Virus record (IMG/VR): IMGVR_UViG_3300048838_000241
Coordinates: 1-25,306 of that record
Length of the DNA: 25,306 nucleotides
Source of the DNA: a virus
Direction: 5' to 3' (one strand)
In this document: positions 8,915 to 19,573 of the stretch, in pieces
Layout of the letters: each line of letters opens with the position of its first letter
Position numbering within the stretch: the first letter of the stretch is position 1
The notes under the pieces: generated by a model
What the model was told of the DNA's origin: nothing
What the model saw: the letters and a program-made list of their open reading frames with translations, nothing else
Database searches by the model: none
Position numbers and translations under genes: made by a program

Positions 8915-11900
8915 TCAGATCCTTAGCTGGGCTGAGTGCCGGTAAAAGAGGCCCGCCCGGGTGGCGTACGGCCACTCGACTTCAAGCGATTGGTTGCCGC
9001 CGGAGTCCACGGTGTAGCGGTCACTCCAGACGATCGGGTCGCCCTCCAGGTACTGGTACTGGTGCAGCCCGTCGAGCCGGAAAATCGCGTAAGCTGACGC
9101 CGCGACATGCAGGGCCGCCATGTAGCGCGTGGCGTCGGAGGCTTTCAGGATGTGGAAGCCGGCCGGCGTGTCCTGCCATCCCGAGGCCCAGGGGTGATTC
9201 GGTTGCCTCCAGTTCGATCCGGAGCTGAACGACAAGATCGGCAGCCCGGTCGTGACCTCACGGACGAAATACGCGCTGCCCCAGCCGGTGTTGCCCGCCG
9301 TATCGCGCCCTTCGTTCTGGCTGTAGACCTCGTAGAGCAGATCGCCGGCCGGCTCCACGTCCGCCTGGCTCGCTTCGCGGACAGGCAACGGAGCAGGGAC
9401 CAGGCCGCTGTCGGCGAGCGGCTTGGAAGGCATCAACAGGTTGGCGCGTTCGGCCACGGGAACCGCGTCGTCCAACGGCCAGTCGGCGATCGCTCCCGAT
9501 TGCAGGCCGGACGACAGATCGTCATATCGCTGGATGACGCCGGATTCGTACAGCTCAGCCGCCTCCGCTCCGGAAAGCTCTCGGTCCCAGGTCCGCACCT
9601 GGCCGAGCACACCTTGAACGCCGTCGACGTTGCCGAGGCGGCGCATCAGGACCAGCGGCACACTATTCAGCGTCGTGCCGGTCAGGGTGTTGCTGCTGGT
9701 GGACGTGCTGACCGCTTCCCCGTTGCGGTAAATCTTTAGGCCCGCCGGGGTCCGGGAGCCGTCATACGTCACCAGGATCTGGCGGAGCTCGTTCAGCGGC
9801 AGCGTTCCTGCCGCCGCCGTGACGGACAGGTCATCGCTGGTCGTCGTGTTCCGCACGGCCACGAACAGTCCACGACTGGCCGTGACGGCGACGAAGTAAC
9901 CACGTGTCAGGTCAGGATCATATTTACCCCAGAGGATGCCCGTCCCGCTGGAGTGCTGACAGAGGAAATTCAACTCAACGGACCACGGCTCATCGGAGTC
10001 GAAGTCGAAATCCGTGGCGTTCGGGTGCTGCAATCGTGCGTACAGGGGATCGGTCGTCATCCCCTTCGCGCCCCAGGCGCCGACCTCGGGACCGTCCGGG
10101 TCGGACTCCACCCAGACGTTGTAGCTCGTGGCGCCCTCGGGATAGAGCAGTTGCGTCATCGCGTACCGCGTGCCGTCACGGTAGACCCGCACAGCGTACG
10201 ATTCGCTCACGCTATCGTCGGTGGACTTGAGGATGCCGGCCGCGCCGCCCTTGCTGTCCCCGGCCACGTCCGAGTAGCGCATCGCCACGGGCCCCACGTA
10301 CTGCTGGGCGAACGGCGTGTCCGTGAGCGATTGCCGATCGTAGCTGTAGTGGGGGTTGACCTCGATCGGGTCCGACCCGCTCACCAGCTCGAAGCGGGGC
10401 GGGAACATGACCAGCGCGTTCGTCAGGCTGCCGTAGGTCACGTTGGGATTCAGCAATACCCCCTTCTCGTCGAACTTGGGGGCGGAGTAGCCAAACGGGG
10501 ATCCGCTCGTGAACGACCGCACTTCACCCTGTGGACTGGCCGAGGAGCCGGGGGCCACGTCGATCACGCCGTCCCCGTCGTCGTCCGACCACAGCCACCG
10601 GGACTTGGTGGAGGAGCCCGCGTCGAACTCGCTGTTGACGCCCGGCCACACCTGCAGGTGCCCCAGGCCCACCGACGCACAGTGCCGCAGCGAGCCGTCC
10701 GGCATGATCTGCCACACGTTGACGCCCCGGGTCAGGCTCGCGTGGTAGAGGTACGGGATCGGTCCCCAGGGCGTCTGGAGGGTGAGCAGGTTCGTGCTCG
10801 ACTGATCCCGCGTGGCGAACTTGAAGTCGGGTGGGAACGTGCTCCTGGTCGGCAACCACGTGCCGTCGCCCCAGCCGCCCTCCAGGGTCGAGCCGTCCAG
10901 CGCCAGGCGGTACTCGCCGATCCCCGTCACGATCTTCGCGGTGTTGCCGGTGATCCCCTCCGGGTTCCACCGCACCGACCCCTGGAACTCCTTGCTCGCC
11001 TTCAGGAGCAGGCTGTTGTCGCCGCCGAAGACGGCCGTCGTGCGCGTGCTGGTGTCGTAATAAGCGTAGCCGCCCGTCGACGGGTTGACCGCGAACCGCC
11101 CCACGTCCACGAACTGGGGCAGGGTGATGTCGAAGTCGTCGAGCCGGTCCCGGTAGCCGAGCTGGCCGTCCCTGGTGCCGCCCGACGAGGGGGTCGAGGT
11201 CACGTCGTATTCGCGGACCTGGCCCGAGGTGCGGTCGAAGTAGACCAACGAATACTCACCCGCCGCCCGCTCGAACACGCAGGGGCTGGCAGGTTGACCC
11301 AGCCCCGTGATCTCCACGTCGGCCGCGCTGAACACGTACGATTCGTCGTAAGGATACCGTTTGATCGTGCTCCCCGCGGCGATCCAGACCCCGCCGCCCC
11401 TGGGGTCGAGGCAGAGACCCCGAGAGCTGGTCAGGCCCGTCACCGCGTCGGCGTCCACCAGCGACCCGGCCTTGGTGTAGACGGAGAGCTGGCTGTTGAT
11501 CGAGTCGAGCAGGAACAGGTTGCCGCTGGGCTCGGCCGCGATCCCCGTATACCGCGGGGTCCGGCTGTCCTCGGTCGAGAGGGTCGCCAGCGTGGTCAGC
11601 CCGGTCCCCGCCGACCGGCTCAGGCGCTGGAGCAGGTGGTCGGAGCCGTCAGCCCGGATCAGGTACAGGTACGTGGCGTCTGTCGTCAGGGCGTAGGCGT
11701 AGTTGCTGGTGGCGTTGGTGCGCCAGGCAATCGTGCCGGCCACCGGGTCGAGCCGGGTCGTGTAATAGCCGTTCTCCTCGAAGTCCTGGCCGATATACAG
11801 GTTGCCGTCGGCGTCGAAGTGCAGAGACGCGACGGAGCCAGGCGCCGCGTTGAGTGCACTGACCGCCGACTGGCTCCCGGCGAGATTGTGGTGAGCGACC

Positions 11901-13204
11901 CCTTGCAGGGGCGTCACGGTAGCCCGGCTGAACAGAGCCACCGGCTTGCGTGACACGCTGGTCGTCGCCGTGAACGGGGCGAAGAGCTGGAACTTGTCCC
12001 ACCAGAATTCCTTGATGCCCGGCTCCACCTGGGCTCCGGGGATCAAGGCTGCCGTCAAGGCCCCGGTCGCCGGGTCGACGAGCCCCACGCTCAGGTGTCC
12101 GCTGAGCGGCACGTCCACCGTGAAGTGCGGCGTGGGGGCGCTCAGCGCGTTGCGGGAGATCACGTGCAGCCGATGCAGTGCCCCGGTGCCGGTCCCGGTC
12201 TGGCCAGCGATATCGGTACCGGTCGCGCCGAACGTCGCGAAGCTCTTGGAGCCGGCCGGGTAGGTGCCGTACTTGTTCACAACCTCAAGCCGGTGCGTCT
12301 CGACGGGATCTTCGAAGATCGCGACCGTGTCCGACGTGACCGGATCGGTCGTGCTCCAGACCTCGGTGGGGCTGCCTCCAAGCGGCGTGTACAGGATCGC
12401 CGCCCCGTTCTGCCAGGCGTCCAGGCCCGTCGAGCCGAAGTCCCGGAAGGCGAACCGCACGCCGTCGACCAGCAGAGGCTGCGTCCAGGTCAGGGCGAAC
12501 TTCGCGTCCTCCGTCTTGCCCGTGGCGCCCGCCGCGTACTGGAGCACGCGAAAGTGGTTCTCGTAAGTCTCCTGACGGAGATTCTGGCCGATATTCAGCT
12601 CGCCCCAGGGCGTAGCTGTGCCGCTGCGAATGTAGGCCGAATCCCAGAGGGACAGGCCCTCGTTGTCGAAGAGGGCCTCGTTGTTGAAGGCGTCCGCGAA
12701 GGCGCGGAAGCCGTAGAGCCGCCAGTCGGCGCCACGGAAGCCGGTGAAGGTGAACCGCAGGTAACGGGCCGCGCGGCTCGAACCCATGATCCGCCAGTTA
12801 TCCGTCCAGTACCGCGTCAGGCTCCCCAGCGTGCTCCAGCTCGATCCGTCCTCCGACGTGCTCAGGCTGATCGAGTTCGGGTCGCGGCTGGGCCCGTAGA
12901 ACCACGTTTCCACGGAGTGGAGCTTGTAAATGCGTGTCAGATCAACCGTCAGAACCGCCTGCCCGGCCGCCGCCGCCTGTTCCGGGATCGGATCGATGAT
13001 GAACGGCCGCCCCGGGCGCATCTGGAGCGCCAGGTCCGCGTCGTTGTAGAGGCTGCTGGCGTTGGCCTGGCTGTTCATGTAATCGACGGTGCAGGTCGTC
13101 TCGCGCACGCCCAGCGCCGTGTACCGCTGGCATAGGTCGGCCGCATAGATGCCGTAGAAGACGTCGCCGGGGTTTCGTGCGTGGTAGTACAGTTGGTTCG
13201 GCAC
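8915..13204 (-). CDS. Giant multidomain adhesin-like virion protein (discoidin-like, propeller-like, LamG-like)
   Basis: This encodes 1429 residues with a GTG start preceded by GGAAGG at ten bases. Domains seen by eye: a discoidin/F5-8C-like region (about 45-170: LTRIYKLHSVETWFYGPSRD, AARYLRFTFTGFRGADWRLY); a propeller-like middle with NHL-type strands (about 450-700: ASLHFDADGNLYIGQDFEEN, GIAAEPSGNLFLLDSINSQL); an EF-hand-like Ca loop SDDDGDGVID; and a LamG/concanavalin-like domain (about 1065-1222: FDSDEPWSVELNFLCQHSSG, LRQILVTYDGSRTPAGLKIY). A 200-residue C-terminal region has no recognised fold. There is no signal peptide or membrane helix, so it would be built into the virion rather than secreted. 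The gene opens the adhesin cassette inserted between neck and tail genes. Carbohydrate or surface binding is likely; the individual domain names are tentative. Confidence 0.85.
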   Translation of the reverse strand: MPNQLYYHARNPGDVFYGIYAADLCQRYTALGVRETTCTVDYMNSQANASSLYNDADLALQMRPGRPFIIDPIPEQAAAAGQAVLTVDLTRIYKLHSVETWFYGPSRDPNSISLSTSEDGSSWSTLGSLTRYWTDNWRIMGSSRAARYLRFTFTGFRGADWRLYGFRAFADAFNNEALFDNEGLSLWDSAYIRSGTATPWGELNIGQNLRQETYENHFRVLQYAAGATGKTEDAKFALTWTQPLLVDGVRFAFRDFGSTGLDAWQNGAAILYTPLGGSPTEVWSTTDPVTSDTVAIFEDPVETHRLEVVNKYGTYPAGSKSFATFGATGTDIAGQTGTGTGALHRLHVISRNALSAPTPHFTVDVPLSGHLSVGLVDPATGALTAALIPGAQVEPGIKEFWWDKFQLFAPFTATTSVSRKPVALFSRATVTPLQGVAHHNLAGSQSAVSALNAAPGSVASLHFDADGNLYIGQDFEENGYYTTRLDPVAGTIAWRTNATSNYAYALTTDATYLYLIRADGSDHLLQRLSRSAGTGLTTLATLSTEDSRTPRYTGIAAEPSGNLFLLDSINSQLSVYTKAGSLVDADAVTGLTSSRGLCLDPRGGGVWIAAGSTIKRYPYDESYVFSAADVEITGLGQPASPCVFERAAGEYSLVYFDRTSGQVREYDVTSTPSSGGTRDGQLGYRDRLDDFDITLPQFVDVGRFAVNPSTGGYAYYDTSTRTTAVFGGDNSLLLKASKEFQGSVRWNPEGITGNTAKIVTGIGEYRLALDGSTLEGGWGDGTWLPTRSTFPPDFKFATRDQSSTNLLTLQTPWGPIPYLYHASLTRGVNVWQIMPDGSLRHCASVGLGHLQVWPGVNSEFDAGSSTKSRWLWSDDDGDGVIDVAPGSSASPQGEVRSFTSGSPFGYSAPKFDEKGVLLNPNVTYGSLTNALVMFPPRFELVSGSDPIEVNPHYSYDRQSLTDTPFAQQYVGPVAMRYSDVAGDSKGGAAGILKSTDDSVSESYAVRVYRDGTRYAMTQLLYPEGATSYNVWVESDPDGPEVGAWGAKGMTTDPLYARLQHPNATDFDFDSDEPWSVELNFLCQHSSGTGILWGKYDPDLTRGYFVAVTASRGLFVAVRNTTTSDDLSVTAAAGTLPLNELRQILVTYDGSRTPAGLKIYRNGEAVSTSTSSNTLTGTTLNSVPLVLMRRLGNVDGVQGVLGQVRTWDRELSGAEAAELYESGVIQRYDDLSSGLQSGAIADWPLDDAVPVAERANLLMPSKPLADSGLVPAPLPVREASQADVEPAGDLLYEVYSQNEGRDTAGNTGWGSAYFVREVTTGLPILSFSSGSNWRQPNHPWASGWQDTPAGFHILKASDATRYMAALHVAASAYAIFRLDGLHQYQYLEGDPIVWSDRYTVDSGGNQSLEVEWPYATRAGLFYRHSAQLRI

Positions 13205-13920: not shown

Positions 13921-14274
13921 TCAGACGTAGGGCTCATGCAGGACCAGGCAGTTGGTGTTCGCCCCACCGCCGCCATCGGCGACGACGAACCCAAACAGAG
14001 CGTTGTTGGTCGAGGTGGTCGTGACCTTCTTGGCCGAGTTGTCCCACCAGACCTTGGCATAATCGGCCGCGTTGTCGAGGTTCACGACCTCGTACACACC
14101 GCCTCCAACAGCGAGGGCGCCCTGTACGTTGTTCTCCAGATCGACGTGGGCCACGCCGCACGTCAGGCCGGTCGTGTTGCCGAGCAGGATCACGTCACCG
14201 GCGTCCACGTCGCCGGAACTTGGGGTGTAGTCGACCATCTGCGGGTCGCCGTGGCGAAAAGTGGCCTCGGCCAT
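13921..14274 (-). CDS. DUF2190-type capsid decoration (cement) protein
   Basis: This encodes 117 residues with an ATG start in a TGACATG junction. The N-terminus (MAEATFRHGDPQMVDYTPSS, GDVDAGDVILLGNTTGLTCG) followed by HVDLENNVQGALAVGGGVYE matches the DUF2190 pattern of small beta proteins encoded next to phage major capsid genes and thought to stabilise the outer capsid. The final third (GFVVADGGGGANTNCLVLHE) is Gly-rich. In this window the gene is separated from the capsid gene by the Pro/Glu-rich protein and the glycosyltransferase-methyltransferase fusion; as an exposed capsid surface protein it is a candidate glycosylation target. Confidence 0.85.
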   Translation of the reverse strand: MAEATFRHGDPQMVDYTPSSGDVDAGDVILLGNTTGLTCGVAHVDLENNVQGALAVGGGVYEVVNLDNAADYAKVWWDNSAKKVTTTSTNNALFGFVVADGGGGANTNCLVLHEPYV

Positions 14275-14275
14275 G

Positions 14276-15607
14276 TCAGACCTCCAGGGGGACAGGTGCT
14301 AGGAGAGAGGCCGGGGGTCGCACCACGGCCAGGGAACCGGACACGGAGAGCAGCTCGCCGCCGGACGCGAGGAGATTGTCCACGGCCACCTTCACGTCGG
14401 GGTCGGTGCCGTTGTCGTAGTCGTGGAACGCCAGCAGGCCGCCAGGCGCCAGCAGGGACGCCGCACACCGGATATCGTTCTCGACGCTCGCCAGGTCGTG
14501 CGCCCCGTCGATAAATGCGAGGTCGAATCGGTCTTCCGGCCAGTGGTTGCCGTCGGCGAAGAAGTCCAGCGGCGTCGTTGAGATCGTGACCTTATCGGCC
14601 ACGTCGTACCGCAAGAGGTTGGCCTGGAACGTCGCGAGCGTGTCACGTGGCTCGGGAGTGCCGCGCCCGTCGTGCGGGTCGATCGCGTGGACGTGACTCG
14701 CGGTGCGGGCCAGGCAGATCGTGGACAGCCCGCAATAGCTGCCGATCTCCAGCACGCGCTTGCCCTGGGCGAGCCGGGCCAGCGCCTTGCCCTCCTCGGG
14801 CAAGAGCCAGCCCAGAACGTCCCAGGGGTGGACGTAGCCGTCCCGGTCGGCCTCGGGGACCGGGCTGCGGTCAGTCCAGGAAGAATCAAAGAACTGGCCC
14901 CAGGGCCGCTCGTTGGAGAACGGCGCGGGGCCTCGGTGCGTGAGCCGGATCTTGCGGGTGGCCCCGACCTTCAGGCCCAGCTCGTGGCAGAGCCGGGAGA
15001 AGTACCAGTCCTCGGGCTCGACCTCGGCGATGTATTCGTTCTTGTAGATGTCATAGACGATCCGGTCGTTGATCGTGAACCGGACCTTGCGGGCCCATTC
15101 GAGGTCGAACCGGCAGACCCACAGCCCGGTATTGAGCAACAGCGGACGGCCCAGGTCCTCGCTCGTGAAAGTCTCCGGCAGCCGGAACACGTCGGACATC
15201 GACAGCCGGCAGTGGGGCCGCCAGGTGTCCCCGTCGTCGCGAGCCAGGGCCAGCGACGTGAGCCCCTTGGCGTCCTTGATCGGGACGACAGCTCCCAGCA
15301 CGTCGAGGTTACGGGCCTCCAGCTCGTTGATCAGCGTGTCCAGCCACCAGTCCTGTGGTTCGACGTCCGCGTGGAGCATCGCGAAGTAGTCGACGCGCTG
15401 CCCCTTGTGGGCCAGGTTGAGAGCGTCGGCCCAGAGCCGATTGAAGTTGGCCGCGAGCAGCGAACCCTGCCGGTACTGATAGACGACCTGGTGGCTCGGC
15501 AGTTGGGTCGCCCGCCAGAAGGCACGCGCGGCCCCGGCCGTGACCTCACCGTAACCGGGTTGACCCAGGAAGACGCGCCGATTTTCACGAGATACGGATT
15601 CAAGCAT
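14276..15607 (-). CDS. Glycosyltransferase-methyltransferase fusion within the head gene cluster
   Basis: The start used is the ATG at 15607, which overlaps the upstream stop by eight bases and gives 443 residues. Longer starts up to 15736 read through the upstream gene and yield an Arg/Pro-rich artefact. Residues 1-230 look like a GT-A-type glycosyltransferase: HADVEPQDWW (79-88, DxD-like position), LDVLGAVVPIKDAKG, LLLNTGLWVCRFDLEW and VEPEDWYFSRLCHELGLKVG. Residues 275-430 are a class I SAM-dependent methyltransferase: motif I VLEIGSYCGLST (285-296), AIDPHDG (308-314), FDLAFIDGAHDLASV and LLAFHDYDNG. The gene lies between the capsid and decoration protein genes, translationally coupled to its neighbours. 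Sugar addition plus O-methylation of virion proteins is inferred; modification of host surface polysaccharide is the alternative. Confidence 0.85.
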   Translation of the reverse strand: MLESVSRENRRVFLGQPGYGEVTAGAARAFWRATQLPSHQVVYQYRQGSLLAANFNRLWADALNLAHKGQRVDYFAMLHADVEPQDWWLDTLINELEARNLDVLGAVVPIKDAKGLTSLALARDDGDTWRPHCRLSMSDVFRLPETFTSEDLGRPLLLNTGLWVCRFDLEWARKVRFTINDRIVYDIYKNEYIAEVEPEDWYFSRLCHELGLKVGATRKIRLTHRGPAPFSNERPWGQFFDSSWTDRSPVPEADRDGYVHPWDVLGWLLPEEGKALARLAQGKRVLEIGSYCGLSTICLARTASHVHAIDPHDGRGTPEPRDTLATFQANLLRYDVADKVTISTTPLDFFADGNHWPEDRFDLAFIDGAHDLASVENDIRCAASLLAPGGLLAFHDYDNGTDPDVKVAVDNLLASGGELLSVSGSLAVVRPPASLLAPVPLEV

Positions 15608-16002: not shown

Positions 16003-18129
16003 TCACGAAGCGCCCTTGCTCTTCACGCCGCCCCGGTATTCCTGCTTGGCGACCCCGAAGTGGTGCACGCCCCGGATATGGATGCCCAGGGTATCGAAGT
16101 CGGCGTCGGCACTCTCGACGATCGGCATGTCCCGGCCGTCCAGGAGGGCGACCTCGATCACCGGCACGTCGTTCGGGTCGGCCAGGAGATACCAGGCCGT
16201 GGCGCTGTAGCCGGTGTAGCTGGAGTTGCTGAGGTACGACGCATGCACGACCCTGAAGTTGCCCGCGAACGGGTTGGACGTGCCGAACGAGGTGTTGGCG
16301 GTCGTGTCCCGGATCTCCGTCGAGTTCATGAGCTGACGAGCCGGACTCTTGAGCGCGTTGGGCACCAGCAGGATCTTCGGCATCACACCCAGGGGCTTAC
16401 CGTCGGGGTCCGTCTGGTTCAGGAACAGCGTTTCGGCCCGGGTCAGGCCCTCGATATTGAGACGGCTGTCGTTGGTGCCGGCGGTGGCGCCTTCCTGGTA
16501 GTTGCCGTTGCCGGTGGCGAAGAATGCGGAGTTGTCCATGAACGCACGCCAGAACACGTCGTTGATCTTCAGCGCGCCGCCACGCCCGAGCCGGCGCGGG
16601 ACGGCCGTGAAGGCGCCCAGGTCGTCGTTGCGGATATCCTGGTACGTGATCGCCAGCATCCGGCCGTAGCTCTTGGCGCGGTTGGTGTACGTCTCCTCGC
16701 CCAGCGTGCCGTGCTTGATTTCGCCGGCCGGGCCGATCTCCAGGTAATCCAGGTCGCCGGTGAGCGAGTGGCTGGTGATCGTCTTGAAATCGTTCACCGG
16801 CCGAACCGCACTGATCTCCCGCCAGCCGGACTCGACGTGGTTGAACGCCTCGACCAGAAACTTATTGGCGACGTTGGCGAGGATTCCAGGCAGGCTCATC
16901 GTCGAGAAACCGGACGCCTCGATCGACTGGCCGCGAGCGAACGAGGCTTCCAGCAAGCCCCGGACGTTGCGGGCCGAGATCGTGCCGTGTCCGTTCTCGC
17001 GAGCCGCCAGCATGAGCAACTCGACCAGGCCGAGGCCGTGCTTGAAGCTCTCGGAGGCTGCCTCTAGCGCGTCCTCCTTGAAGTGCTTTTCGGGATCGGA
17101 CAGACCGGCCGACATGCAGATCGCCGCCTCAATTACCTTGGCGCTGGCCTTGCGGTTGGACCGAGAAATCATGCCGGGAGCCTGGGGTCGCATCGCCCGC
17201 AGAACGACCAGCTCGAACTCGGTCGGGCTGCTCTTGGCCTCGATCGCCGCCCTGGCCATGCGGCCCAACTCCTCGCGGAGCATCGGACGCTCGTCGATCG
17301 CCGCCTTGCACATCGCGGTGATCTTGTCCTGCCGCTCCTGCTCGCGCTGAGCTTCAGCCAGGATGTCATCAAGATTTGTTTGCAGTTGAGCCTGAACCGG
17401 AGTGTTCGGCGTCGAGGTCGGCGTGGGGGCCGGTGGCGGGGCCTGCTCGGCGTCGTAAGCCGCCTTAAGGACGGTCTTCTGCTCGTCACTGAGGGCCGCC
17501 GGGTCGAACCCCTTGGCCTGAAGCCATGCTTCAAATTTCATCTCTACACCCTCATGGGGATTGCCAGGGGAATTCGACGCGGCCACGGAAGCCGACGTCT
17601 GCGAGTCCGCGCCGATGGCGACGAACGAGGTCTCTTTCAAAATCGCCTCGCGGGCGATCACCAGCGGGCCGGAAACGCGCCGGCCGTTGACCGTGGCCGT
17701 CTTGCCCGGTTCCAGGTACTCACGCCGGACAACGCCCGCACCGATCGACGCCTGCCACTGGAAGCCGTTGCGTGCGTGCGTGACGACCTTGGCCGCATCG
17801 CCGTCGTCGCCGGTGATCGTGCCTTCCAGCCGGACCCCGGCCGCGTCGATCGTCGAGGTCGCCTGGCCGACGATCCGTGACGGGTCATGATCCAGCAGGA
17901 TCGGGATACGGTCCCGGCTCGCCTTGAGCCCGGCCAGGTCGACGACGACGGGCGTATAAAATCCGGCCACGGTCATGACCGATCCGGTGTATCCGGTGAT
18001 CGTGAACGTCGGCCGCTTACCCTCGCCTTCCGCCGCCTGGAACTCGACGGTTCCGGTCGCCTGGATCACGGACGGGGCGGCAGACGCCTCAATCGTCGTC
18101 GGGGTCGTCGTCGGGGTCGTCGTCGGCAT
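16003..18129 (-). CDS. Fused prohead protease - scaffold - major capsid protein
   Basis: The ATG at 18129 has AGGAGG five bases upstream (18135-18140), the best ribosome site in the window, and gives 708 residues; it overlaps the portal gene by 41 bases. Longer frames upstream are rejected. Residues 1-190 resemble a prohead serine protease: PILLDHDPSRIVGQA with H81, QWQASIGAGV with S128 and ILKETSFVAIGADS. A linker and helical scaffold-like region follow (about 197-350; Pro-rich PPPAPTPTSTPNTP, then LDDILAEAQREQERQDKITA). The C-terminal ~330 residues resemble major head proteins of the Mu gpT/HK97-fold type (DFKTITSHSLTGDLDYLEIG, AKSYGRMLAITYQDIRNDDL, GRGGALKINDVFWRAF, NALKSPARQLMNST). Self-cleavage to release the capsid subunit is expected. 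An internal start at 17541 may give scaffold-capsid alone. Confidence 0.93.
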   Translation of the reverse strand: MPTTTPTTTPTTIEASAAPSVIQATGTVEFQAAEGEGKRPTFTITGYTGSVMTVAGFYTPVVVDLAGLKASRDRIPILLDHDPSRIVGQATSTIDAAGVRLEGTITGDDGDAAKVVTHARNGFQWQASIGAGVVRREYLEPGKTATVNGRRVSGPLVIAREAILKETSFVAIGADSQTSASVAASNSPGNPHEGVEMKFEAWLQAKGFDPAALSDEQKTVLKAAYDAEQAPPPAPTPTSTPNTPVQAQLQTNLDDILAEAQREQERQDKITAMCKAAIDERPMLREELGRMARAAIEAKSSPTEFELVVLRAMRPQAPGMISRSNRKASAKVIEAAICMSAGLSDPEKHFKEDALEAASESFKHGLGLVELLMLAARENGHGTISARNVRGLLEASFARGQSIEASGFSTMSLPGILANVANKFLVEAFNHVESGWREISAVRPVNDFKTITSHSLTGDLDYLEIGPAGEIKHGTLGEETYTNRAKSYGRMLAITYQDIRNDDLGAFTAVPRRLGRGGALKINDVFWRAFMDNSAFFATGNGNYQEGATAGTNDSRLNIEGLTRAETLFLNQTDPDGKPLGVMPKILLVPNALKSPARQLMNSTEIRDTTANTSFGTSNPFAGNFRVVHASYLSNSSYTGYSATAWYLLADPNDVPVIEVALLDGRDMPIVESADADFDTLGIHIRGVHHFGVAKQEYRGGVKSKGAS
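17539..17553 (-). promoter_or_regulatory. Internal ribosome site and ATG inside the protease-capsid gene
   Basis: GAGGG at 17549-17553 lies seven bases ahead of an in-frame ATG (17539-17541) that falls exactly at the end of the protease domain (residue 197, MKFEAWLQAKGFDPAALS). Initiation here would yield a 512-residue scaffold-capsid protein without protease, comparable in principle to the internal start of Nu3 within lambda gene C. The site is visible; its use is inferred. Confidence 0.6.
18088..18124 (-). repeat. 12-bp tandem repeat read in two frames (portal tail and protease start)
   Basis: About three copies of CCGACGACGACC lie in the overlap of the portal and protease-capsid genes. 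In the portal frame they encode DDDPDDDPDDD before the TGA; in the protease frame they encode PTTTPTTTPTT right after the start Met. A unit of 12 is a multiple of three, so gain or loss of a copy keeps both frames. Confidence 0.8.
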
Positions 18130-19573
18130 CGTCGCCTCCTGGGGCGGTTGACGGGGTGGCAGGTTGGACGGCCTCGCCGGGATAGGGCAGGCCCAGCTCG
18201 CGGTAATAGGCCCGCTCCTCGGCACGCTGGCGAGCGATCTCCCGCCAATCGTTGCCGTCCTCGGCACACTCGATATCCAGCGAGGTCGTGCCGTTGGCCA
18301 ACCGCGTGTCCTGGGCGTTGGCTTCCTTGATCGGATCAACGTGCTTGAATCCGTCCCAGCCCCAGCGACGGCGGGGAAGACGGGTCAAATCGAGCCCGGC
18401 GACGGTCTCCGGGTCGGTCAGCGCCGCCTCGGTGAGCCAGGCCCGCAGAATCCGGTCAAGGATGCGCGTTTCGAGGAAGTAGCGGTCCACACCGATCGAG
18501 CGGTGATAGACCTGGTGGTCGAGCCGGCCAGAGGAGTAGTTGTAGGTCGAGCTGTTGCCTGCCGCGACGTTGAACGGCATGTTCAGGCATCGCGCAATCT
18601 CACCTAGCAACGCATTCTTGAAACTGTCATACGTGGTCGCCGGGTGGTCCGGCTTCATCTGCTGGGCCTCGTAGCCCTCGGGCAGCGCGGCCATCATGCC
18701 GCGGACCAGCTCCTGGGTATCGAACGGAGTGATGGCCGGCGTCTCATCGTCCGGAGGCATGGTCGTCTTGAGCAGCACCGCGAACAGGGCCGCGATCTCG
18801 GCCGCGTGGACGGTCGCCAATGTGTACCGCCGCAACAGGGCGTACAGGGGCAGGGCCGGCGTGATTTCGGGCACGCCACGCACCTGACCGGATCGCCGGA
18901 CCTTGAACCAGTGCAGTACGTACCGGGCGGGAACGCGATCGTACTGGCCCCAGGCCGCGCCCCGACCGCCCCAGTCGCCCGGGTGGTACTTCAGGACGTG
19001 GTATTCGCTCGGGTTGCCGTGGGCGTCGAACCGCACGCCATCGACCGCCAGGGGATCGTCCCAGGGCAGGTACGGCGTCGAGACCTGATCACACTCCACG
19101 GCCTTGAGGTCGAGCTTGACCGCCGTCGGCAGCTCCGGGTTGGTGGTCAGCAGCAGGAACCCCTCGCCGCTGATCGTGCGGTCTTCACGGTAGGTCCGCA
19201 GTCTCTCGGCCAGGCCGGTGGCGGCGGCCCACTCCTCAAACGATTCAGCCACGCGAGCGTTGAGATCCCGGTCGGGTGTCTGGAGCTGGAGCCGTGGCCC
19301 GGTGCCGATCGTGTCGTTGGCGAGCGTCTCGGCCATTCCTGAGCAGTAACTATTGTTGTCCCGTTCATATCTCGCCCGCTCGCGGAGCTTACGCCGGACC
19401 TCCAGGCTGTTCGCCTGGGCAGCCGACAGCCCGTCGGCCTGTGCCCAGTGCGCCGTGTTCTCGGCGGTCGTCTGGGCCGCGTCGTACTTCGCGCGAAGGT
19501 TGCGCACGCCGGGCATGAGCTGACGAGCAGGAGAGGATCGCACAGGCTTGCCATCGGGACCGAGGATCGGCAC
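18089..19573 (-). CDS. Portal protein, lambda gpB family
   Basis: This encodes 494 residues with a GTG start in a TGACGTG junction with the gpW-like gene and GGGAG about ten bases upstream. The N-terminal half has the lambda-portal pattern: LRERARYERDNNSYCSGMAE, TLANDTIGTGPRLQLQTPD, DRTISGEGFLLLTTNPE and LDLKAVECDQVSTP. The central part has RYVLHWFKVRRSGQVRGVPE, YALLRRYTLATVHAAEIAAL and the gatekeeper-type NMPFNVAAGNSSTYNYSSGR. The C-terminus ends in an acidic DDDPDDDPDDD tail encoded by a 12-base repeat shared with the next gene. Portals form the dodecameric channel through which DNA enters and leaves the head. The call is firm. Confidence 0.95.
   Translation of the reverse strand: MPILGPDGKPVRSSPARQLMPGVRNLRAKYDAAQTTAENTAHWAQADGLSAAQANSLEVRRKLRERARYERDNNSYCSGMAETLANDTIGTGPRLQLQTPDRDLNARVAESFEEWAAATGLAERLRTYREDRTISGEGFLLLTTNPELPTAVKLDLKAVECDQVSTPYLPWDDPLAVDGVRFDAHGNPSEYHVLKYHPGDWGGRGAAWGQYDRVPARYVLHWFKVRRSGQVRGVPEITPALPLYALLRRYTLATVHAAEIAALFAVLLKTTMPPDDETPAITPFDTQELVRGMMAALPEGYEAQQMKPDHPATTYDSFKNALLGEIARCLNMPFNVAAGNSSTYNYSSGRLDHQVYHRSIGVDRYFLETRILDRILRAWLTEAALTDPETVAGLDLTRLPRRRWGWDGFKHVDPIKEANAQDTRLANGTTSLDIECAEDGNDWREIARQRAEERAYYRELGLPYPGEAVQPATPSTAPGGDDADDDPDDDPDDD

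What the first reader, a model, noticed from the sequence alone, without database searches (positions are those of the whole stretch)
14276..15607. Glycosyltransferase-methyltransferase fusion embedded between capsid and decoration genes
A 443-residue protein joins a GT-A-like half (HADVEPQDWW, EPEDWYFSRLCHEL) to a SAM-dependent methyltransferase half (VLEIGSYCGLST, FIDGAHD, HDY). It is translationally coupled inside the head module, next to the capsid and DUF2190 decoration genes. Glycosylated virions are known in some phages (for example certain mycobacteriophages), with glycosyltransferases encoded near structural genes. A single-chain enzyme that could add a sugar and then O-methylate it would be a compact virion-glycan system. 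Capsid, decoration or the giant adhesin are plausible targets.
Basis: partly seen in the sequence, partly recalled or inferred. Interest (0 to 1): 0.85.

Follow-up and report, generated by a model that had tools for sequence, protein, structure and literature searches.

The report
Phage sugar-transfer and methylation fusion enzyme
A phage gene sitting between the capsid and head-decoration genes encodes a sugar-transferring domain joined to a sugar-methylating domain, and its presence across related phages tracks two specific asparagines in the neighbouring decoration protein, which makes that protein the best testable candidate for being coated with a sugar.

Summary
The minus strand (15607..14276) encodes a 443-residue protein with two confidently modelled domains. 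The first is a GT-A-fold glycosyltransferase whose metal and catalytic residues are invariant (H79xD81, NTG159-161, ED199-200, H224). The second is a class-I O-methyltransferase whose closest solved relative is the mycobacterial sugar methyltransferase MeT1. More than 60 uncultured phages carry relatives, mostly between capsid and DUF2190 decoration genes. The methyltransferase is optional, and fused in the opposite order in some distant relatives. Cultured phages lack the protein.

Position does not prove the target: in relatives the same slot also holds HNH endonuclease-like and DNA-methylase genes. New evidence points to the decoration protein. Of 37 DUF2190 columns conserved in glycosyltransferase carriers, only Asn48 and Asn90 are nearly invariant with the enzyme (45/46 each) and absent in all 18 relatives without it. 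The second Asn of each doublet is unaffected, and the major capsid protein shows no such column. Independent contrasts are few (4-5, all agreeing).

Best reading: a compact virion-glycosylation enzyme that glycosylates the decoration protein, then O-methylates the sugar. This is a new variant of a known kind (compare chlorovirus A064R, cluster O mycobacteriophages). Substrate, donor and activity are unproven.

The parts
14276..15607 (-). GT-MT fusion gene, 443 aa
   Evidence: translation; relatives; AlphaFold2 mean pLDDT 91.7
14843..15607 (-). GT-A glycosyltransferase domain (residues 1-255)
   Evidence: model pLDDT 94.8, pTM 0.91; Foldseek to STIV A197, COLGALT1/GT25, LH3, RmlT, Mimivirus R699; stand-alone homologues of 250-290 aa in the same slot
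14279..14842 (-). class-I SAM O-methyltransferase domain (residues 256-443)
   Evidence: PF13578 E 4e-17; profile hit to MeT1 6g7d E 6e-17; Foldseek rank 1 MeT1
15365..15373 (-). HxD metal motif H79-A80-D81 (DxD equivalent)
   Evidence: H79 and D81 invariant in 26 relatives
15125..15133 (-). G-loop N159-T160-G161
   Evidence: invariant in 26 relatives
15005..15013 (-). xED motif E199-D200-W201 (putative catalytic base D200)
   Evidence: invariant in 26 relatives
14930..14938 (-). C-His H224-R-G226 (third metal ligand)
   Evidence: H224 and G226 invariant
14720..14755 (-). SAM-binding motif VLEIGSYCGLST (285-296)
   Evidence: conserved in alignment A5
14417..14425 (-). H395-D396-Y397, MT active-site motif
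   Evidence: H and D invariant in 23 MT domains; aligned with the HD of MeT1
14281..14285 (-). GGAGG ribosome-binding site of the DUF2190 gene inside the last codons (explains the recurrent PLEV C-terminus)
   Evidence: sequence; alignment
13921..14274 (-). DUF2190 / Phage_cement_2 head decoration protein, proposed acceptor
   Evidence: PF09956 E 7.5e-15, phrog_122; solved homologue gp48 minor capsid protein 9gay
14131..14133 (-). DUF2190 Asn48 codon, GT-linked residue
14005..14007 (-). DUF2190 Asn90 codon, GT-linked residue
15600..15917 (-). small ORF (105 aa) between capsid and GT-MT, weak phrog_2616 match
16003..18339 (-). prohead protease-major capsid fusion
   Evidence: PF25209, PF04586, phrog_4523
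18089..19573 (-). portal protein, lambda family
   Evidence: PF05136 E 4e-59

Best explanation
The gene encodes a soluble bifunctional virion-modifying enzyme made with the head proteins. The N-terminal GT-A domain is inferred to transfer a host-derived nucleotide sugar onto a virion protein, most likely the DUF2190 decoration protein encoded 1 nt downstream, at or around Asn48 and Asn90. The C-terminal domain is inferred to O-methylate the transferred sugar with S-adenosylmethionine, capping it. Shown: ORF, two folds, invariant catalytic residues, conserved head-module location, optional and order-swapped methyltransferase domain, and GT-linked decoration-protein asparagines. Inferred: activity, donor, acceptor, order of reactions, and biological benefit (masking or altering the virion surface).
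For: GT-A fold with HxD, G-loop, xED and C-His invariant in 26 sequences. MT domain closest to the sugar 1-O-methyltransferase MeT1 by profile (E 6e-17) and by fold (function in PMC9883506). Between capsid and DUF2190 in nearly all close relatives; 39 GT-MT and 10 GT-only distinct DUF2190 partners. MT lost or gained 6-8 times on a capsid tree and fused in reverse order in L081-L083, L101, L102, so the two domains repeatedly go together. Capsid or decoration neighbours recur even in distant lineages with other capsid families. Of 37 conserved DUF2190 columns only N48 and N90 separate GT+ (45/46) from GT- (0/18), in 5/5 (or 4/4) independent pairs; N49 and N91 do not, and capsid columns do not. 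No NTP_transferase-type sugar-nucleotide gene on 14 longer contigs, consistent with use of host donors.
Against: No biochemical data. Independent GT+/GT- contrasts number only 4-5 on supported branches (sign test p 0.06-0.125). In some contrasts the whole DUF2190 type differs, so the asparagines may reflect a co-inherited allele. Exceptions: L050 (N48 to S), L059 (N90 to S), a distant GT-minus DUF2190 with STNN (L110), and several GT-minus ones with Asn48 only. The slot also hosts HNH-like, DNA-methylase and unknown cargo. Some homologues lie elsewhere in the structural module with no recognisable DUF2190, and one (L091) follows an exonuclease gene. Direct Asn glycosylation by a GT-A enzyme would be unusual (own knowledge).
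Confidence: 0.55

Rival explanations
1. Virion glycosylation and methylation, but of another protein (major capsid, tail tube, the 1429-aa adhesin or tail fibre); the DUF2190 asparagines matter for a different reason.
For: Head-module placement in several capsid lineages, including lineages without detected DUF2190. In mycobacteriophages the known targets are capsid and tail tube (PMC12619734, PMC11600133).
Against: No column of the capsid C-terminal 420 residues tracks the GT (best frequency difference 0.63), whereas two DUF2190 columns do.
Confidence: 0.22
2. The enzyme modifies a host surface glycan (receptor masking or superinfection exclusion) and sits in a cargo slot of the late operon.
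For: The capsid-DUF2190 slot carries unrelated cargo in relatives: HNH-like ORFs L205 and L229, DNA methylase L152. MT-GT fusions occur in cellular surface-glycan pathways (WsaE).
Against: No membrane segment or signal peptide evident in the sequence or model, late structural location in many lineages, tight DUF2190 coupling, and the Asn48/Asn90 association.
Confidence: 0.15
3. The protein modifies phage DNA or a small molecule (the PHROG hit is labelled DNA methyltransferase).
For: phrog_2675 is annotated DNA methyltransferase; phage glycosyltransferases that modify DNA are known (cited in PMC12619734).
Against: The MT has no DNA-methylase Pfam match and is closest to O-methyltransferases and MeT1; no DNA glucosyltransferase is among the 50 best fold hits of the GT; location is in the head module.
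Confidence: 0.06
4. The domains are inactive and serve a structural or chaperone role in head assembly.
For: Head-module neighbours; catalytically dead glycosyltransferase relatives exist (COSMC, PMC7185993).
Against: All catalytic and SAM-site residues invariant or nearly so.
Confidence: 0.02

Closest known systems
Chlorovirus PBCV-1 A064R (three-domain GT-GT-methyltransferase)
   Same: A single virus-encoded chain with a GT-A domain and a C-terminal sugar O-methyltransferase domain that builds and methyl-caps a glycan of the capsid protein (PMC9614988).
   Different: A064R has a second GT domain, is in an algal giant virus and acts on the end of an N-glycan. Sequence kinship was not shown here.
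Cluster O (Corndog-like) mycobacteriophage virion-glycosylation genes
   Same: Phage glycosyltransferases beside an O-methyltransferase gene, reported to modify capsid and tail-tube proteins (PMC11600133, citing Freeman et al. 2023; original not held).
   Different: Separate genes there, a single fused chain here; here the decoration protein is the implicated target; no tblastn match of the window protein in 50,697 phage records at E 1e-5.
MeT1 (6g7d), mycobacterial methylmannose polysaccharide 1-O-methyltransferase
   Same: Nearest solved relative of the MT half by profile and fold; acts on sugar hydroxyls.
   Different: Stand-alone enzyme of polysaccharide metabolism; about 25% identity.
WsaE of Geobacillus stearothermophilus
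   Same: One chain with methyltransferase and glycosyltransferase domains; methyl cap on an S-layer glycan (PMC2943079).
   Different: Cellular, N-terminal methyltransferase, two GT domains.
STIV A197 and GT25-type COLGALT1 / LH3 / Mimivirus R699
   Same: Nearest GT-A folds, including viral proteins and protein-acting glycosyltransferases.
   Different: Only 10-15% identity; fold-level similarity only.
GT plus FkbM-methyltransferase protein of an uncultured Caudovirales phage (BFVD A0A6J5M7M7)
   Same: Top viral fold match of the GT domain, in a 788-aa protein annotated as a methyltransferase.
   Different: Larger protein with a different (FkbM) methyltransferase annotation; context not examined.

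Membership tests
GT-A fold glycosyltransferases | GT-A alpha/beta/alpha fold | tested here: met
   Model pLDDT 94.8; best PDB fold hits mostly GT-A enzymes, E 4e-8 to 1e-5
GT-A fold glycosyltransferases | DxD metal motif | tested here: inconclusive
   HxD with invariant D81; the first Asp is replaced by invariant His79
GT-A fold glycosyltransferases | G-loop glycine, xED and C-His | tested here: met
   N159TG161, E199D200, H224 invariant in 26 sequences; definitions from PMC7185993
Pfam Glycos_transf_2 (PF00535) | score above gathering cut-off | tested here: not met
   19.4 bits against 23.3; weak match in 10 of 26 relatives
Methyltransf_24 (PF13578) | score above gathering cut-off | tested here: met
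   63.4 bits against 26.3; 18 of 26 members of A2 match, the rest lack the domain or are truncated
Sugar O-methyltransferases (MeT1-like) | nearest characterised relative acts on a sugar | tested here: met
   6g7d E 6e-17, next hit 3e-12; function in PMC9883506
Sugar O-methyltransferases (MeT1-like) | methylates a sugar hydroxyl | not testable with these tools
   needs an enzyme assay
Phage virion-glycosylation enzymes | encoded with virion genes | tested here: met
Phage virion-glycosylation enzymes | virion protein carries the glycan | not testable with these tools
   needs mass spectrometry of virions
A064R-type multidomain capsid-glycan enzymes | GT plus sugar MT in one viral chain | tested here: met
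   Domain content by sequence and model; activities not tested
A064R-type multidomain capsid-glycan enzymes | second GT domain and sequence homology | tested here: not met
   443 aa, two domains only; no A064R-D1 structure is recognisable by name among the 50 fold hits listed

The most novel reading that the evidence does not exclude
A phage enzyme family glycosylates two Asn residues (first Asn of the 'I-x-N-N' and 'S-T-N-N' doublets) of the DUF2190 decoration protein by a non-sequon, GT-A-catalysed N-glycosylation, and a fused methyltransferase O-methylates the sugar. Enzyme and decoration allele are inherited as a cassette that has been swapped in and out of head modules several times.
Probability: 0.3. 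Interest if true: 0.8.

Novelty: new variant of a known kind. Interest (0 to 1): 0.58.

Why it matters
In the papers available here, virion glycosylation in tailed phages is documented in mycobacteriophages, with separate enzymes. A widespread single-chain glycosyl-plus-methyltransferase tied to one small decoration protein would give a simple two-gene system to test how phages coat their heads with capped sugars, and it names the residues to look at. If Asn48/Asn90 are acceptors it would also be an unusual cytoplasmic, non-sequon N-glycosylation.

Tried and rejected
Pfam alone does not identify the GT half (below cut-off), and a PDB sequence-profile search with it found nothing at E up to 1; structure prediction was needed. 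tblastn in cultured phages with the window protein gave nothing; with a distant homologue only weak hits, mostly in the MT half. DUF2190 of the window has no tblastn match in cultured phages. The recurrent C-terminal PLEV looked like a docking tail shared by GT-only and GT-MT proteins, but its codons hold the GGAGG ribosome-binding site of DUF2190, so it was dropped as a protein motif. Position as proof of virion function was rejected because the slot holds other cargo in relatives. The idea that GT-linked residues lie in the capsid was tested and rejected for the C-terminal 420 residues. A motif search for STNN-like sites in other proteins of GT carriers without DUF2190 found no convincing equivalent. 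NTP_transferase (sugar-nucleotide pyrophosphorylase-type) genes on 14 longer contigs: none. First genome-contig scan with the full-length profile: nothing.

Full report
OBSERVATION. The window is an IMG/VR virus record of 25,306 bases. Its ATG overlaps the end of a 105-aa ORF. Its stop lies one base before the start of the DUF2190 gene, and the GGAGG of that gene's ribosome-binding site is inside the enzyme's last codons. Going along the minus strand the order is terminase, portal, protease-capsid fusion, small ORF, GT-MT, DUF2190, head completion, Neck1-like, a 1429-aa lectin-domain protein, tail-fibre-like gene and tape measure.

WHAT THE TWO HALVES ARE. The C-terminal half is a class-I methyltransferase (PF13578, E 4e-17). 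A profile of 23 such domains finds MeT1 (6g7d) as the best solved relative at E 6e-17, ahead of catechol-type O-methyltransferases (next hit 3e-12), and MeT1 is also first by fold. MeT1 methylates the 1-OH of mannosides (PMC9883506). The N-terminal half is only weakly recognised by Pfam GT2 (19.4 bits, below cut-off), and a PDB profile search found nothing. AlphaFold2 models it at pLDDT 94.8, and Foldseek places it among GT-A enzymes: STIV A197, collagen galactosyltransferase COLGALT1, LH3, RmlT, Mimivirus R699, and phage GT-A proteins in BFVD. H79xD81, N159TG161, E199D200W201 and H224xG226 are invariant in 26 relatives spanning 43-82% identity. They correspond by order and spacing to the DxD, G-loop, xED and C-His elements of the GT-A core (PMC7185993). 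The metal motif is HxD, not DxD; metal dependence is inferred.

DISTRIBUTION. Three scans of IMG/VR with protein, full-length profile and GT profile found 4, 31 and 153 related stretches (the last kept 79 loci). The window protein has no tblastn match in 50,697 phage records at E 1e-5. Six bacterial MAG contigs carry a relative; two, labelled Gammaproteobacteria and Woeseia, have the full portal-capsid-GT-MT-DUF2190 order.

SYNTENY AND MODULARITY. In close relatives the gene lies after the capsid and usually within a few bases of DUF2190. The GT occurs alone in the same slot (L020, L021, L024, L026, L039, L042, L060, L061, L068), so the GT is the constant part and the MT is optional. On a capsid tree the MT changes state 6-8 times among GT carriers. 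In distant relatives (L081, L082, L083, L101, L102) the MT is fused in front of the GT instead. Repeated and order-swapped fusion suggests that the two reactions act on the same product (inference). In distant lineages with other capsid families the GT gene still lies close to a major head gene (L080, L082, L083, L088, L092, L093, L096) or directly after a head-decoration gene (L101); L091, where it follows an exonuclease gene, is an exception.

POSITION IS NOT PROOF. In relatives without the GT, DUF2190 usually follows the capsid gene directly. The gap can also hold unrelated cargo: a DNA-methylase ORF in L152, HNH-endonuclease-like ORFs in L205 and L229 (identified by reading, not by a family search), and an unknown protein in L184. 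A cargo-slot reading therefore had to be tested.

WHICH TARGET. I compared the DUF2190 proteins of 49 GT-carrying loci with 75 from GT-lacking loci. On a capsid tree GT presence changes 7 times, with GT-lacking phages (L129/L130, L152, L153, L155/L160, L165) nested among GT carriers. Of 37 DUF2190 columns conserved in carriers, Asn48 and Asn90 are the two that are nearly invariant in carriers (45/46 each) and absent in all 18 non-carriers on the tree; the only other column with no match among non-carriers is Gly21 (40/46), which is a gap in most of them. Each is the first Asn of a doublet (I-x-N-N and S-T-N-N); non-carriers typically read I-A-A-N and A-T-G-N. The second Asn (49, 91) shows no significant association. 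No column of the capsid C-terminal 420 residues behaves like this (best frequency difference 0.63 against 0.98). Both columns go with the GT in 5 of 5 independent pairs on supported branches, 4 of 4 when long branches are removed. The sign test cannot reach 0.05 with so few pairs, and the Fisher values ignore relatedness. One DUF2190 scan used STNN as a search pattern, and the loci from it that lacked the GT and had upstream sequence lacked STNN; the distant L110 is a GT-minus exception. Other exceptions are L050 and L059. In some contrasts (L155, L160, L165) the DUF2190 is of the type common in GT-lacking phages, so GT and DUF2190 allele may move as a cassette; in L129/L130, L152 and L153 the DUF2190 type is retained but the two asparagines are gone.

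MECHANISM (inference beyond the anatomy). The enzyme, made with the head proteins, takes a host nucleotide sugar (no NTP_transferase gene on 14 longer contigs), glycosylates DUF2190 at or near Asn48 and Asn90, and O-methylates the sugar. Phages with GT only would carry the uncapped sugar. Alternatives are that the asparagines are recognition rather than attachment residues, or that another virion protein or a host glycan is the acceptor.

COMPARISON WITH THE KNOWN. It works like chlorovirus A064R, one chain with GT domains and a methyltransferase that builds and caps a capsid glycan (PMC9614988), and like the GT genes beside an O-methyltransferase gene in cluster O mycobacteriophages, reported to modify capsid and tail tube (PMC11600133; the primary paper is not held). 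It does not share A064R's architecture (two domains, not three). WsaE shows that MT-GT fusions can cap an S-layer glycan (PMC2943079). One search of the held library for decoration proteins and glycosylation returned no title or abstract reporting a glycosylated DUF2190, but the literature search was limited.

VERDICT. Real, well-conserved, enzymatically plausible, and a new variant of virion glycosylation, with a specific substrate hypothesis. Activity and substrate remain unproven.

Noticed in passing
window 13204..8915, minus strand: A 1429-aa protein with an F5/F8 type C-like and a Laminin_G_3 (lectin-like) domain sits between the Neck1-like gene and the tail genes; unusual place for a large adhesin.
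   Followed up: no
L102:4392-5804 and L102:8896-9699: A phage-like contig in a Planctomycetaceae MAG carries both an MT-GT fusion and a second stand-alone GT of the same family downstream of its capsid gene.
   Followed up: no
L061:8010-9889: Two GTs of this family flank DUF2190 in one phage.
   Followed up: no
L103:5775-11977: A divergent GT homologue on a 444-kb Planctomycetota MAG contig lies near YcaO and luciferase-like genes, possibly a cellular biosynthetic cluster.
   Followed up: no
L152:3500-4150, L205:4143-4682, L229:1476-2153: The capsid-DUF2190 gap is an insertion slot that in relatives holds a DNA-methylase ORF or HNH-endonuclease-like ORFs.
   Followed up: partly
L079:16526-16732: A second, truncated DUF2190-like ORF at the end of the locus, about 7.3 kb downstream of the first.
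   Followed up: no
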